Positions 26,342 through 34,077 of a stretch of DNA of 64,000 bases are shown piece after piece. The translations under genes and the position numbers were made by a program. Source of the stretch: Aeromicrobium fastidiosum (GTDB lineage: Bacteria > Actinomycetota > Actinomycetes > Propionibacteriales > Nocardioidaceae); the NCBI RefSeq assembly GCF_017876595.1, contig NZ_JAGIOG010000001.1:1612001-1676000 (forward strand). Direction: 5' to 3'. How positions within the stretch are numbered: position 1 is the first letter of the stretch; the number at the start of each line of letters is the position of its first letter. The notes beneath the pieces were generated by a model. The model did no database searches and was not told the origin of the DNA. It saw nothing but the letters and a program-made list of their open reading frames with translations.

Positions 26342-26393
26342 TGCTGAGACGCACGCCACATCGTCACTCGACGGATCGCTGCTAGATTGCGAC

Positions 26394-26549
26394 GGCCAGT
26401 CAACTCAGTGATGAGCCAGGGAACCCGGTGTGAGTCCGGGACTGTCGCGCAGCGGTGAGGGTGACGGGCGGAGCACGAGGCCACTGGACCGATACGGGTC
26501 TGGGAAGGCGCGCCGCCTGGTTGATCCCGAGTCCGAAGACCTGCTGGCC
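26394..26549 (+). ncRNA. Cobalamin riboswitch upstream of B12 importer operon
   Basis: B12-box architecture: P1 GGCCAG (26394-26399) pairs with CTGGCC (26544-26549). The conserved core GAGCCAGGGAACCCGGTG, then GTCCGGGACTGTCGCGCAG and the 3' GAGTCCGAAGACCTGC are all present. Twelve bases of the 3' core (26527-26538, CCGAGTCCGAAG) are exactly complementary to 26599-26610, immediately before the btuF-like ribosome site. This gives an obvious switching helix. Adenosylcobalamin should repress the transporter genes. Confidence 0.93.
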
Positions 26550-26622
26550 GTGGACCCGATCGTCCGCGTCACCCACTCACCAGGCTTCGCGAAAAAGCCT
26601 TCGGACTCGGAAGAGATCTCTC

Positions 26623-29434: not shown

Positions 29435-30075
29435 CTGCGCTGGTGCTCGTGGGCATGTCGATCGCCGAGGTGAACGACCGCCACGTCCTCGCGGCTCGCG
29501 CCGCGGACGAGGGCGCGACGGTCGCGTTCCTGCAGCACGGGGAGCCGTCGCTGGTCGACGAGCTCACCCGCCTGGCCGGCGACGGGGTCGACGTCATCCG
29601 CCTCGAGCCCGTCGTGCTGACGGATGCCCGGTCGCCGGGGCGGTCGTGGGTGCGCCGGGTCGCGGGGCACTGGCTGCGCGAGGCGCGCCGGCGTCCGACG
29701 ATCCTGGTCGGCGGCACACCTGTCACGGGGGAGGAAGCCGCACTCACGTCATCCGCGTGGGAGCACGTGCCGGGACACTCCCGGCACCTGCTGGTGTGCC
29801 GCGGCCCGCGGTGCTCGGCCCGTGGGGCCCAGCAGACGTCCGAGGCGTTCGACTCGGCGCTCCGCGAGGCGGGGCTCGGCGACGACGACGTGCTGGTCAC
29901 GCAGACCGGCTGCCTGTTCCCGTGCAACCAGGCACCCGTCGTCGTGCTGCACCCCGACGACGCGTGGTTCGGCGGGGTCGACGAGGCGGCAGCGCGACGC
30001 ATCGTGATCGAGCGGCTGGGCTGGGGACTGTCTGTCAGCGATCTGCTGCTGCCGCGCAAGAAACACCAGATCTAG
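29431..30075 (+). CDS. [2Fe-2S] thioredoxin-like ferredoxin-domain protein with CbiX-like N-terminus
   Basis: A 214-aa protein. The N-terminal half (MTALVLVGMSIAE, then VAFLQHGEPSLVDELTRLA) resembles chelatase-type sirohydrochlorin-binding folds. The C-terminal half is a thioredoxin-like ferredoxin with four cysteines: LLVCRGPRCSARGA and TQTGCLFPCNQAPV. It is the last gene of the riboswitch-controlled B12 importer operon (ATGA overlap). A role in reducing or processing incoming corrinoid is plausible but is inference. Confidence 0.75.
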
Positions 30076-30111
30076 TAGTTACAAGCGTGTGGTTTCCATA
30101 TACAGTGGTTG

Positions 30112-30322
30112 ACGCAGCTGGTTCGGCTCCTCAGCCAGGGGAGTCGTGGCAACAGGGAACCCGGTGAAAATCCGGGACTGCCCCGCAGCGGTAAGTGGGA
30201 ACGACCTTCGTCATCAGCACTGGGACTCGTCTGCATCGTCAGGCGGCCTGGGAAGCGACGAACAGTAGGCGGCGGCGCGCGAGCGTCGCCTGGCCCGTGA
30301 GTCCGAAGACCTGCCAGTGCCG
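30112..30322 (+). ncRNA. Cobalamin riboswitch upstream of class I ribonucleotide reductase
   Basis: A second B12 aptamer: CAGGGAACCCGGTGAAAATC, GGGACTGCCCCGCAGCGGTAAG, and the 3' GAGTCCGAAGACCTGCCAG. Ends are approximate. Between the aptamer and nrdA, CACCCCTC (30422-30429) is exactly complementary to the ribosome site GAGGGGTG (30461-30468), and another ACCCCTC occurs at 30410-30416. Translation control by ribosome-site masking is therefore likely. A TATACA hexamer at 30099-30104 may be the -10 of its promoter. Confidence 0.92.
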
Positions 30323-30421
30323 CACCGTCCAGACGACGGTGTGGGTCCGCGACCTCGTGGGAAGGTCAGGGGATCAGGTCGTGCTGCCACGTCTCCGACA
30401 CCGGAGCCGACCCCTCCTCTG

Positions 30422-30468
30422 CACCCCTCAGGCTCGGACTGCGTCCACGCACCAGTTCACGAGGGGTG
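30422..30468 (+). promoter_or_regulatory. Anti-Shine-Dalgarno hairpin before nrdA
   Basis: CACCCCTC at 30422-30429 can pair over eight bases with the nrdA ribosome site GAGGGGTG at 30461-30468, leaving a 31-nt loop. This would be the expression platform of the upstream riboswitch. Pairing is seen; switching is inferred. Confidence 0.65.
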
Positions 30469-30474
30469 AACCGC

Positions 30475-32982
30475 ATGACCATCACAGTCATCAAGCGCGA
30501 CGGATCGCGCGCACCGTACGACGGCTACGAGATCGCCAGGTCCATCGAAGAGGCCAGCACAGGGCTCGACGACCAGGTCGCCCGCGTCACGCAGCTGCAG
30601 TCTGAGCTCGAGATCACGCTGTTCGACGGCATCACGAGCGAGCAGCTGGACGAGGCTGTCGTCCAGGTCGCGCTGCAGAACGTCAAGGACGACCCGGCGT
30701 TCGACACCATCGCGTCGCGCCTGCTGGTCAAGACGCTCTACAAGAAGATCTTCGGCGAGGGCGTGACCCGCGACGAGGTCTACTCCTTCCACGGTCCGGC
30801 CTTCGTCGCCTCGGTGCTGCGGGGTGTCGAGCTGGACCTGCTCGACGCGCGCCTGGCCGAACTGTTCGACCTCGAGGTGCTGGGTGCCGCGCTCGACCCC
30901 GACCGCGACGACCTGATCCGCTACATCGGTGCCCAGACCATGCGCACGCGCTACATGATCTGCGAGCCCGACGGCACACCGCTGGAGGTGCCGCAGTTCT
31001 TCTGGATGCGCGTCGCGATGGGCCTGTCGCTCAACGAGGCCGATCCCACGGCGTCCGCGATCGCCTTCTACGACAAGATGTCACGGCTCGAGTACCTCGC
31101 CGCGGGTTCGACGCTCGTCAACGCCGGGACGTCGTATAGCCAGCTCTCCAACTGCTTCGTGATGCAGATGGAGGACGACATCGAGCACATCGCCAAGAGC
31201 GTCCGCGACGTCATGTGGCTGACGAAGGGCACCGGTGGCATCGGCATGTCGGTCAGCAAGCTGCGCTCCGAGGGCTCGCCGATCCGGTCCAACAACACGT
31301 CGTCGACCGGGCCGATCCCGTTCATGCACACGATCGACTCCACGCTGCGGGCCATCAGCCGCGGCGGCAAGAAGTTCGGTGCCCTCTGCTTCTACATGGA
31401 GAACTGGCACCTCGACTTCGCCCAGTTCCTCGACCTGCGGGCCAACTCCGGCGACCCGTACCGGCGCACCCGCACCGCCAACACCGCGGTGTGGATCTCC
31501 GACGAGTTCATGAAGCGCGTGCAGGACGACGGCGACTGGTTCCTGTTCGACCCACTCGACGTCCCCGACCTGACCGAGCTGTACGGCGCGGCCTTCTCGG
31601 CCCGCTACGCCGAGTACGTCGCGATGGCCGAGGCGGGACAGCGGCGGCACAAGAAGCTGCGCGCCCGCGAGCAGTTCCGCGCGATCCTGGTGTCGCTGCA
31701 GGCCAGTTCCCACCCGTGGCTGACGTGGAAGGACACCATCAACACCCGCGCGCTCAATCACAACACCGGCACGATCCACCTGTCGAACCTCTGCACCGAG
31801 ATCACGCTGCCGCAGGACCGCGACAACGTGGCGGTCTGCAACCTCGCGTCGATCAACCTCTCGCGGCACGTGACCGGACGGCGCCAGCAGGCCCGCATCG
31901 ATTGGATGCGTCTGGCCGAGTCGACCCGGCTCGCGGTGCGTCAGCTCGACAACCTGATCGACATCACGATCTCGTCGGTGCCGGAGTCGGAGCACTCCAA
32001 TGCGATGAACCGCGCGCTCGGCCTCGGCGTCATGGGTTTCACCGACATCGTCGAGCGCTTCGGCCACTCGTACGAGTCGGAGCAGTCGTACGAGCTGATG
32101 GACGAGATCATGGAGTTCATCAGCTGGCACGCCATCGACGCCTCCGCCGACCTAGCGCGTGAGCGTGGGGCTTACCCCAACTTCGAGGGGTCGCGCTGGA
32201 GCCAGGGGATGGTGCCGATCGACTCGATCGACCTGCTCGAGTCTGATCGCGGTGTGCCGGTCGACGTCGACCGCACGACCCGGCTCGACTGGGAGTCGCT
32301 GCGGGGCAAGGTCTCGGCCGGTATCCGCAACTCCACGCTGATGGCGATCGCCCCGACGGCGTCCATCGGCCTCGTGGCCGGTACGACACCGGGGCTCGAC
32401 CCGCAGTTCAGCCAGATCTTCAGCCGCGCGACGAGCTCGGGCAAGTTCCTCGAGGTCAACCGCAACCTCGTCGAGGACCTGCGCGCGCTCGGCCTGTGGG
32501 AGCAGGTACGCGAAGACCTGCTGCGCCACCAGGGCGACCTGTCGAAGGTGGAGGGGGTCCCGGCCGAGCTGCAGGAGATCTACCGGACAAGCTTCCAGCT
32601 GTCGCCCTACGCGTTCATCAACGTCGCGGCCCGCGCCCAGAAATGGATCGACCAGGCCATCAGCCGCAACATCTACCTGCAGAGTCGTGATGTCGGCGAG
32701 ATGGTCGAGCTGTACGCCGCCGCGTGGCGCATGGGCGTCAAGACGACGTACTACCTGCACATGATGCCCAGGCACACCGCCGAGCAGAGCACCGTCAAGG
32801 TCAACAAGGCCGAGGCCTCGACCTCCGCCGGAGGAGCGGCGCGTCGCGGCTTCGGCGCGGCGAGGACGACCCCGCCCCTTGAGCCTGTCGAAAGGGCCGA
32901 CCGCGTCGAGCTCGACGTGATCGACGGTGCCGCCTGCCCGGTCGATCCGCAGGAACGACTGAACTGCGAGTCGTGCCAGTGA
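30475..32982 (+). CDS. nrdA: Class I ribonucleoside-diphosphate reductase, large subunit
   Basis: An 835-aa catalytic subunit reducing ribonucleoside diphosphates. N-terminal ATP-cone: ITVIKRDGSRAPYDGYEIA (residues 2-20). The active-site Cys is in QLSNCFVM, with NLCTEITLP, VAVCNLASINLS, the radical-relay tyrosines in TTYYLHM, and the shuttle pair at the extreme end, CESCQ. The C-terminal linker contains LEPVERAD, encoded by a copy of a dispersed repeat (32876-32896). ATG at 30475 lies eight bases after GAGGGG. B12 riboswitch control implies that a B12-dependent class II enzyme exists elsewhere in the genome. Confidence 0.95.
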   Translation: MTITVIKRDGSRAPYDGYEIARSIEEASTGLDDQVARVTQLQSELEITLFDGITSEQLDEAVVQVALQNVKDDPAFDTIASRLLVKTLYKKIFGEGVTRDEVYSFHGPAFVASVLRGVELDLLDARLAELFDLEVLGAALDPDRDDLIRYIGAQTMRTRYMICEPDGTPLEVPQFFWMRVAMGLSLNEADPTASAIAFYDKMSRLEYLAAGSTLVNAGTSYSQLSNCFVMQMEDDIEHIAKSVRDVMWLTKGTGGIGMSVSKLRSEGSPIRSNNTSSTGPIPFMHTIDSTLRAISRGGKKFGALCFYMENWHLDFAQFLDLRANSGDPYRRTRTANTAVWISDEFMKRVQDDGDWFLFDPLDVPDLTELYGAAFSARYAEYVAMAEAGQRRHKKLRAREQFRAILVSLQASSHPWLTWKDTINTRALNHNTGTIHLSNLCTEITLPQDRDNVAVCNLASINLSRHVTGRRQQARIDWMRLAESTRLAVRQLDNLIDITISSVPESEHSNAMNRALGLGVMGFTDIVERFGHSYESEQSYELMDEIMEFISWHAIDASADLARERGAYPNFEGSRWSQGMVPIDSIDLLESDRGVPVDVDRTTRLDWESLRGKVSAGIRNSTLMAIAPTASIGLVAGTTPGLDPQFSQIFSRATSSGKFLEVNRNLVEDLRALGLWEQVREDLLRHQGDLSKVEGVPAELQEIYRTSFQLSPYAFINVAARAQKWIDQAISRNIYLQSRDVGEMVELYAAAWRMGVKTTYYLHMMPRHTAEQSTVKVNKAEASTSAGGAARRGFGAARTTPPLEPVERADRVELDVIDGAACPVDPQERLNCESCQ
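32876..32896. repeat. Dispersed 21-bp repeat, copy 1 (inside nrdA)
   Basis: CCTTGAGCCTGTCGAAAGG (plus flanking C/G), imperfectly palindromic at its ends. Other copies are at 47518-47537 and 60178-60198. Here it encodes LEPVER in the poorly conserved C-terminal linker of NrdA. Confidence 0.8.
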
Positions 32983-33965
32983 GCGGCGGCATCCTCGGGA
33001 CCGGCATCCGCGAGGGGCTCCTGCTCAAGCCCGTCACCTACCAGTGGGCCATGGATCTGTACGACCAGGCGGTCGCCAACACGTGGTTCCCCAACGAGAT
33101 CCAGCTCGGCGAGGATCTCGCCGACTTCGAGCGGATGAGCGACGAGGAGCGTCACGCGCTGACGTTCCTGATGAGCTACTTCAACCCCAACGAGCTGCTC
33201 GTCAACAAGGCGCTGGCGTTCGGCGTCTACCCGTACGTCAACGCCGCCGAGTGCCATCTCTACCTCGCCAAGCAGATGTGGGAGGAGGCCAATCACTGCA
33301 TGAGCTTCGAGTACGTCCTCGAGACGTTCCCGATCGACCGCGAGGCCGCCTACGACTCGCACGTCACGGTGCCGTCGATGGCTGCCAAGGAGGAGTTCGA
33401 GATCCGCTTCATCACGCGGATGACCGAGCAGACCCTCGACATCACGACGACCGAGGGCAAGCAGGACTTCGTCCGCAACCTCGTGGCGTACAACGTGATT
33501 CTCGAGGGCATCTGGTTCTACTCGGGCTTCATGGTGGCGCTGAGCTTTCGGCAACGCAACCTCCTGCGTAACTTCGCGTCGCTGATCGACTGGGTCGTGC
33601 GCGACGAGAGCCTGCACCTGAAGTTCGGCATCAACCTGATCCTGACGGTGCTGGAGGAGAACCCCGACGTCGCGACGGAGGAGTTCGCCGCCGAGATCCA
33701 GCAGATGATCCTCGACGCCGTCGACATGGAGGAGGCCTACAACCGGGACCTCCTGCCGAGCGGCATCCTCGGTCTCAACGCCGACTACATCAACCAGTAC
33801 GTGCGTTACCTGGCGGACCGGCGGCTCGAGGAGCTCGGCTTCGGGCCGCACTACAACGTCGCCAACCCGGCGAAGTGGATGGCCACGGCCAACGACACGT
33901 TGCAGCTCGTGAACTTCTTCGAGTCGACCAACACGTCGTACGAGGTCAATGCCAAGCAGGCCTGA
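32979..33965 (+). CDS. nrdB: Class I ribonucleotide reductase small subunit lacking the radical tyrosine
   Basis: A 328-aa R2 protein. All metal ligands are visible: Asp49 (DLADFER), Glu103 and His106 (WEEANHCMSF), Glu176 (VILEGIWFY), Glu210 and His213 (RDESLH). The residue four after His106, where E. coli has radical Tyr122, is Phe110 (codon 33306-33308). This is the signature of class Ic-type Mn/Fe R2 proteins, in which a high-valent metal replaces the tyrosyl radical. GTG at 32979 overlaps the nrdA stop; an in-frame GTG at 32973 is possible. The C-terminal Tyr needed for radical transfer is present (NTSYEVNAKQA). Confidence 0.93.
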   Translation: MSGGILGTGIREGLLLKPVTYQWAMDLYDQAVANTWFPNEIQLGEDLADFERMSDEERHALTFLMSYFNPNELLVNKALAFGVYPYVNAAECHLYLAKQMWEEANHCMSFEYVLETFPIDREAAYDSHVTVPSMAAKEEFEIRFITRMTEQTLDITTTEGKQDFVRNLVAYNVILEGIWFYSGFMVALSFRQRNLLRNFASLIDWVVRDESLHLKFGINLILTVLEENPDVATEEFAAEIQQMILDAVDMEEAYNRDLLPSGILGLNADYINQYVRYLADRRLEELGFGPHYNVANPAKWMATANDTLQLVNFFESTNTSYEVNAKQA

Positions 33966-34004: not shown

Positions 34005-34077
34005 CACCCCCAACGGGATTCGAACCCGTGCTACCGCCGTGAAAGGGCGGCGTCCTAGGCCGCTAGACGATGGGGGC
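34005..34077 (-). tRNA. tRNA-Glu (TTC)
   Basis: Minus-strand cloverleaf: acceptor GCCCCCA/TGGGGGT, D-arm TCGTCTAGCGGCCTAGGA, anticodon stem CCGCC/GGCGG with loop CTTTCAC (anticodon TTC), and T-arm GGGTTCGAATCCC. CCA is not encoded. Confidence 0.95.

What the first reader, a model, noticed from the sequence alone, without database searches (positions are those of the whole stretch)
33300..33308. NrdB has phenylalanine where the tyrosyl radical should be
In the sequence NrdB keeps all six metal ligands (Asp49, Glu103, His106, Glu176, Glu210, His213). The residue four after His106, matching E. coli Tyr122, is Phe110. Class Ic enzymes such as that of Chlamydia have this change and use a Mn/Fe cofactor instead of a tyrosyl radical. 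The enzyme is also under a B12 riboswitch, so the cell would switch from a B12-dependent class II enzyme to a radical-free-tyrosine class I enzyme when B12 runs out. The class and cofactor are inference.
Basis: partly seen in the sequence, partly recalled or inferred. Interest (0 to 1): 0.72.

Follow-up and report, generated by a model that had tools for sequence, protein, structure and literature searches.

The report
Tyrosine-free ribonucleotide reductase under B12 riboswitch
This soil actinobacterium has a DNA-building-block enzyme that lacks the usual radical-carrying tyrosine, so it probably works with a manganese-iron centre as the Chlamydia enzyme does, and it sits behind a vitamin B12 sensor as the likely backup for a B12-dependent enzyme.

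Summary
The switch idea holds. A cobalamin riboswitch precedes nrdA; the genome has nrdR-nrdJ and no other R2. In 50 relatives the riboswitch precedes nrdA in 20 of 22 with nrdJ and in none of 26 testable without. In 24 genomes this Phe enzyme is the only reductase found, so it must work.
Two additions. In the own family a shared leader precedes either this Phe/Glu enzyme or a Tyr/Asp enzyme (13 of 13 testable loci). The clade has Trp where class Ic has its activation tyrosine, Tyr222.
The Mn/Fe cofactor is inferred. The kind is known; the variant and setting seem new.

The parts
32979..33965 (+). nrdB, R2 subunit of class I ribonucleotide reductase, 328 codons including the start GTG
   Evidence: NCBIfam NF007186 400 bits (cut-off 237), Pfam PF00268 249 bits; GTG start overlaps the nrdA stop
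33306..33308 (+). Phe110, at the radical-tyrosine position
   Evidence: aligned with the Phe of C. trachomatis R2; Phe in 80 of 80 relatives
33192..33194 (+). Glu72, first metal ligand (not Asp49)
   Evidence: aligned with the Chlamydia ligand Glu; Glu in 80 of 80 relatives
33285..33296 (+). Glu103 and His106, metal ligands
   Evidence: alignment
33504..33506 (+). Glu176, metal ligand
   Evidence: alignment
33606..33617 (+). Glu210 and His213, metal ligands
   Evidence: alignment
33591..33593 (+). Trp205, at the position of Chlamydia Tyr222 (activation electron relay)
   Evidence: Trp in 120 of 120 nearest proteins, Tyr in 120 of 120 Chlamydia-like ones
33084..33086 (+). Trp36, equivalent of Chlamydia Trp51 / E. 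coli Trp48
   Evidence: alignment
33603..33605 (+). Asp209, radical-transfer Asp next to ligand Glu210 (role recalled)
   Evidence: alignment
33939..33941 (+). Tyr321, C-terminal radical-transfer tyrosine (E. coli Tyr356; role recalled)
   Evidence: alignment
30475..32982 (+). nrdA, catalytic subunit with one ATP cone found
   Evidence: NF005101 1510 bits, ATP-cone PF03477; cysteines and Tyr-Tyr pair aligned with 5im3
30101..30332 (+). cobalamin riboswitch aptamer upstream of nrdA
   Evidence: RF00174, 88.6 bits, full length
30351..30367 (+). hairpin with conserved loop after the aptamer, shared by Phe-type and Tyr-type nrdAB leaders
   Evidence: motif found in 29 of 31 leaders; 111 of 116 inner-stem cells Watson-Crick, shuffled mean 85, maximum 99 of 1000 shuffles
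26380..26562 (+). second cobalamin riboswitch, before the uptake genes
   Evidence: RF00174, 101.3 bits
26626..29434 (+). binding protein, permease and ATPase of an ABC transporter, probably for cobalamin
   Evidence: PF01497 for the binding protein, best NCBIfam hits below cut-off for all three; substrate inferred from the riboswitch

Best explanation
nrdAB encodes a functional class I reductase of the class Ic type. R2 binds two metals through Glu72, Glu103, His106, Glu176, Glu210 and His213; having no tyrosine at the radical site, it holds the oxidising equivalent on the metals, most likely Mn(IV)/Fe(III), and passes it through Trp36/Asp209 and Tyr321 to the Tyr-Tyr pair and active-site Cys of NrdA. 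During activation the extra electron probably enters through Trp36 and Trp205, where Chlamydia uses Trp51 and Tyr222. The operon is the B12-independent backup of NrdJ: with B12 present the riboswitch keeps nrdAB low and NrdJ works; without B12 nrdAB is expressed. Shown: residues, gene content, riboswitch, co-distribution. Inferred: metal identity, electron route, direction of the switch in this species.
Against: The conserved class Ic relay residue Tyr222 is Trp here. I saw no metal data for any member of this clade. The trees do not show that all Glu/Phe R2s share one origin: with the trait columns blanked, support is 66/0 in one tree, and in the other they are not one clade, though one clade is not rejected (p-AU 0.43); grouping this clade with the Tyr/Asp actinobacterial R2s is not rejected either (p-AU 0.24 and 0.14). 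The co-distribution of riboswitch and nrdJ rests on two changes of each trait in the tree, so it is not many independent cases, and two nrdJ-positive relatives lack the riboswitch at nrdA (L049, L084).
Confidence: 0.7

Rival explanations
1. A metal-centred oxidant other than Mn/Fe, for example Mn2(III/IV) as in class Id, activated by superoxide.
For: Class Id shares the Glu at ligand 1 and needs no NrdI (PMC8463856, PMC6754362, passages); the own genome has no NrdI; the metal cannot be read from sequence.
Confidence: 0.17
2. Fe/Fe enzyme with a radical on another aromatic, such as Tyr112 two residues after Phe110.
For: Tyr112 is invariant in the 25 aligned relatives and in the 80 loci.
Against: The Chlamydia and Saccharopolyspora enzymes have the same Tyr, and the Chlamydia enzyme works with Mn/Fe (PMC8463856, passages).
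Confidence: 0.06
3. A degenerate R2 that has lost its radical residue and is dead.
For: In the family sample 45 of 61 genomes have no R2 at all, so in cells with B12 it can be spared.
Against: All ligands and transfer residues are conserved in 80 of 80 relatives, and in 24 of 50 relatives no other reductase was found.
Confidence: 0.02

Closest known systems
Class Ic ribonucleotide reductase (R2c) of Chlamydia trachomatis, PDB 1syy, 4m1i, 4d8f
   Different: Trp205 in place of Tyr222; under a cobalamin riboswitch and partnered with nrdJ; free-living actinobacteria; a separate supported clade in the tree
R2 of Saccharopolyspora erythraea, PDB 6y2n (PMC7467353, passages)
   Same: actinobacterial Phe/Glu R2 with a solved structure
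   Different: groups with the Chlamydia-type R2s and has Tyr at the 205 position; the passages I read call it only R2 and name no subclass
Streptomyces coelicolor nrdABS and nrdJ (PMC4991794, passages)
   Same: nrdAB under a cobalamin riboswitch with NrdJ as the primary enzyme in vegetative growth
   Different: called class Ia there; two large Streptomyces-like genomes of the phylum sample (my label, genomes unnamed) have Asp/Tyr; the S. coelicolor protein itself was not tested
Propionibacterium acnes nrdAB and nrdRJ (PMC3848588, passages)
   Same: order Propionibacteriales, cobalamin riboswitch before nrdAB, separate nrdRJ operon, RNA-seq sign of early termination
   Different: also has nrdDG, itself annotated with a cobalamin riboswitch; the radical site of its NrdB is not discussed in the passages and was not tested here

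Membership tests
Class Ic (R2c) | no Tyr at the radical site (Phe) | tested here: met
Class Ic (R2c) | Glu at metal ligand 1 (Phe/Glu pairing, PMC8463856) | tested here: met
Class Ic (R2c) | Tyr222 relay residue, described as conserved among R2c (PMC4118035); conserved rather than defining | tested here: not met
   Trp205; Trp in 120 of 120 nearest proteins
Class Ic (R2c) | Mn(IV)/Fe(III) cofactor | not testable with these tools
   needs purified protein
Class Ic (R2c) | nearest solved fold is class Ic | tested here: met
   ranks 1-6 C. trachomatis, rank 7 6y2n
Class Ia | radical Tyr with Asp at ligand 1 | tested here: not met
   Phe110 and Glu72
Class Ib | radical Tyr and an NrdI activase | tested here: not met
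   Phe110; no PF07972 match in the genome; NrdF model 86 bits against cut-off 355
Class Id | Tyr/Glu pairing | tested here: not met
   Glu72 present, Tyr absent
Class Ie | DOPA formed on the radical Tyr, without a metal cofactor | tested here: not met
   no Tyr at the site and all six carboxylate/His ligands kept
R2-like ligand-binding oxidase (R2lox) | matches the R2lox models above cut-off | tested here: not met
   R2lox models at most 81 bits, below cut-offs of 194 or more; nrdA lies directly upstream
Cobalamin riboswitch | RF00174 above the gathering score, full length, upstream of the gene | tested here: met
   88.6 bits against 31.5

The most novel reading that the evidence does not exclude
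In actinobacteria a conserved B12-riboswitch leader serves as a socket for whole class I reductases: a Tyr-radical enzyme or a tyrosine-free Mn/Fe enzyme can stand behind a homologous leader, so the cell's fallback from cobalt chemistry is either iron or manganese plus iron. The Phe enzyme is a distinct class Ic subtype that relays its activation electron through two tryptophans, and in many Microbacteriaceae it has become the only reductase.
Probability: 0.35. Interest if true: 0.62.

Novelty: new variant of a known kind. Interest (0 to 1): 0.46.

Why it matters
The class Ic biochemistry that I read of rests on one obligate intracellular pathogen. A large clade of ordinary soil and water actinobacteria with the same Phe/Glu site, in many as the only reductase found, gives harmless and cultivable hosts in which to ask why a cell would give up the tyrosyl radical for Mn/Fe. 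The Trp205 change makes the role of the Tyr222 relay testable by nature's own variant. The family offers relatives with a Tyr or a Phe enzyme behind the same kind of B12 switch.

Tried and rejected
Class Ib, Id, Ie and R2lox: rejected, see membership table. Degenerate R2: rejected by the genomes in which no other reductase was found. A plain B12-box text search upstream of nrdA gave one hit among the window and the loci although riboswitches are there; it was replaced by covariance searches. One search scored only 40 of up to several hundred candidates per genome with strict filters, which is why the 28 nrdJ-negative loci were scanned directly: 11, 13, 4; two of them (L026, L087) hold no sequence before nrdA. 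The first structure prediction with 25 close sequences was poor (pLDDT 63.8) and was replaced by one with 74 diverse sequences (88.6); residues 307-328 stay under 50. The first extraction of R2s took antisense frames and only 47 of 80 loci; replaced. One origin of all Glu/Phe R2s: neither shown nor rejected. Independent-pairs test of nrdJ against riboswitch: only 2 usable pairs, no power. Anti-Shine-Dalgarno pairing in the leader: better than shuffled linkers at p 0.05 or less in 9 of 27 leaders, 4 of 31 skipped; suggestive only. No intrinsic terminator found in 30000-30520; the fold of 30300-30490 had z -1.4. In situ replacement of one nrdAB type by the other: of four Tyr-type loci compared, one (L138) holds two of the window's flanking genes and one (L139) a distant 33% ATPase match; of seven Phe-type loci only L142 holds the uptake genes, so not supported. 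Literature: ten searches of open-licence papers and the passages read gave no description of this clade's cofactor; one search matched 435 papers and the ten listed had no mention of reductases, so it tells little; subscription papers are not covered, and the original 2004 list of class Ic members (recalled) was not read.

Full report
What is there. The window comes from a one-contig 3.9 Mb actinobacterial genome; the nearest named relative of its NrdB among the loci kept is Aeromicrobium endophyticum, 97% identical. nrdB runs from a GTG at 32979, which overlaps the nrdA stop, to 33965. The codon at 33306-33308 is Phe110, four residues after His106. Against the C. trachomatis R2 it aligns without gaps on Phe127, and Glu72 aligns on the first metal ligand, a Glu in Chlamydia and an Asp in class Ia (reference numbers partly recalled). 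The ligand set is Glu72, Glu103, His106, Glu176, Glu210, His213.

How conserved. In 80 of 80 relatives kept from the genome collection (of 565 that matched; the best 80 were returned) twelve key positions are identical: Trp36, Glu72, Glu103, His106, Phe110, Tyr112, Glu176, Trp205, Asp209, Glu210, His213, Tyr321. In 360 database proteins from three searches (the best 120 of each), 359 have Glu/Phe at positions 72/110 and one has Glu/Met; two of the 120 nearest have Lys for the ligand Glu176, and a few in the other sets lack His106 or Tyr321. From a phylum sample of 296 genomes, 87 of them with a match, I fetched 20 R2s by hand out of 58 places above 200 bits: 13 have Asp/Tyr, 4 Glu/Phe and 3 Glu/Leu; none has Asp/Phe or Glu/Tyr. 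The many weaker R2-like matches were left out. So in these samples the loss of the tyrosine goes with the Glu ligand.

A difference from class Ic. A review states that Tyr222, conserved among R2c, and Trp51 together mediate the one-electron reduction of Mn(IV)/Fe(IV) to the active state (PMC4118035, one passage). Trp51 is kept as Trp36. Tyr222 is Trp205 here: Trp in 120 of 120 nearest proteins; in a second set of 120, Tyr in 103, Trp in 15 and Phe in 2; Tyr in 120 of 120 Chlamydia-like ones. Five of the 15 bear names: Marinithermus, Thermomicrobium, a Thermomicrobiaceae bacterium, a Firmicutes bin and Candidatus Fervidibacter. In a tree built with the columns of residues 72, 110 and 205 blanked, six proteins of this clade and eight of the 15 other Trp-bearing ones form one group with support 100/99. 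The eight Tyr/Asp R2s of the actinobacterial type most like Streptomyces also have Trp at this place, so Trp alone marks no cofactor.

Is it functional? The own genome has this R2 only, no NrdI, no NrdD and a full nrdR-nrdJ. Of 50 relatives, chosen by hand from the 80 loci, 49 have exactly one R2, this one (Leifsonia aquatica has a second), and 28 have no NrdJ above the cut-off, 26 of them Microbacteriaceae by record title. NrdD occurs in 4 of the 49 relatives tested, 2 of them without NrdJ (L087 was left out to make room for the own genome). That leaves 24 genomes in which this Phe enzyme is the only reductase found: 28 without NrdJ, minus L087, minus two with NrdD, minus the one with a second R2. 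Many are draft genomes or bins, so single absences may be false, but the group is consistent. NrdA shows the cysteines and the Tyr-Tyr pair in alignment with 5im3 (which residues are catalytic is recalled).

Regulation. A full cobalamin riboswitch lies at 30101-30332 before nrdA, and a second at 26380-26562 before an ABC uptake operon. Over the 50 relatives the riboswitch stands directly before nrdA in 20 of 22 with NrdJ. The two exceptions (L049, L084) and the 28 loci without NrdJ were scanned directly: none has one, and 26 of the 28 hold the region before nrdA. The tree needs only two changes for each trait and gives two usable independent pairs, so the association is consistent but not statistically independent. 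In Propionibacterium acnes the authors report a cobalamin riboswitch before nrdAB, a separate nrdRJ operon and nrdAB transcription that appears largely to end before the first gene, and they infer that much of the reductase is then made from nrdJ (PMC3848588, passages). In Streptomyces coelicolor the riboswitch-controlled NrdAB is called class Ia (PMC4991794, passages).

The socket. In a sample of 61 genomes of the own family, 54 have NrdJ above cut-off, 45 have no R2 and 16 have a match. Of these 16, 8 are this Glu/Phe R2 (own genome included), 6 are an Asp/Tyr R2, and 2 are weak matches not looked at further; all 14 full R2s lie in genomes with NrdJ above cut-off. NrdA of the five Asp/Tyr loci with a full nrdA is only 34 to 36% identical to the window's. 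All 12 fetched loci with the region before nrdA intact (7 Phe type, 5 Tyr type) have the riboswitch there; with the window that makes 13 of 13, and one Tyr-type locus is cut by a contig end (L123). At least two genomes of this sample are also among the 50 above (G358 and G011, G371 and G009 show the same coordinates). Twelve leaders of both types align over the aptamer and beyond it. They share a hairpin, stem GACC/GGUC with loop NCG(U/A)GGGAN, found in 29 of 31 leaders; L048 lacks it, and L127 has one changed loop base and was cut short in my extraction. Its four inner pairs are Watson-Crick in 111 of 116 cells against a shuffled mean of 85 and maximum of 99 in 1000 shuffles, with compensatory changes. 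Related sequences inflate such a test. The neighbouring genes are mostly not shared, within the Phe type either, so either leader and operon travel together or the surroundings have been rearranged.

How it most likely works. Metal-centred oxidant, most likely Mn(IV)/Fe(III), in a working class I enzyme; backup for NrdJ when B12 is short. Certainty: tyrosine-free oxidant high; Mn/Fe moderate; B12 switch high by homology, untested in this species.

Known or new. Phe/Glu R2s as class Ic are known (PMC8463856, passages; PMC3019208, passages), and the first of these names an environmental actinobacterial cluster among unexplored ones and lists it with Ia-like clusters. Whether this clade is that cluster I could not tell. 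B12 riboswitches before nrdAB are known in Streptomyces and P. acnes. I saw no statement of this clade's Phe/Glu site, the Trp205 change, the sole-reductase status or the exchange of enzyme types behind one leader in the passages read; the searches are named under Tried and rejected and cover open-licence papers only.

Noticed in passing
   Followed up: partly
L004 1177-2583 (own genome C1 around 3339.7-3340.5 kb, minus strand): A 468-aa protein with pieces of the reductase barrel (class II NrdJ model 205 bits, below cut-off), next to a kinase-like gene; not a complete NrdJ.
   Followed up: partly
L079 (contig titled Candidatus Saccharibacteria, 1.16 Mb): NrdB is 88% identical to the window's but NrdA only 59%, and its NrdA has the one long branch flagged in its tree; possible transfer from an actinobacterial host or a mislabelled bin.
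   Followed up: no
P0102 and P0111: Two database R2s of this clade have Lys instead of the metal ligand Glu176; sequence error or dead copies.
   Followed up: no
window 29437-30075: Gene between the transporter and the nrdAB riboswitch: C-terminal part weakly like a thioredoxin-like 2Fe-2S ferredoxin (24.0 bits, cut-off 24.8); role unknown.
   Followed up: partly
L142 15193-15308: A third, weak cobalamin riboswitch match downstream of nrdB in one relative (32.5 bits).
   Followed up: no
window 34005-34077: tRNA gene on the minus strand directly after nrdB.
   Followed up: no
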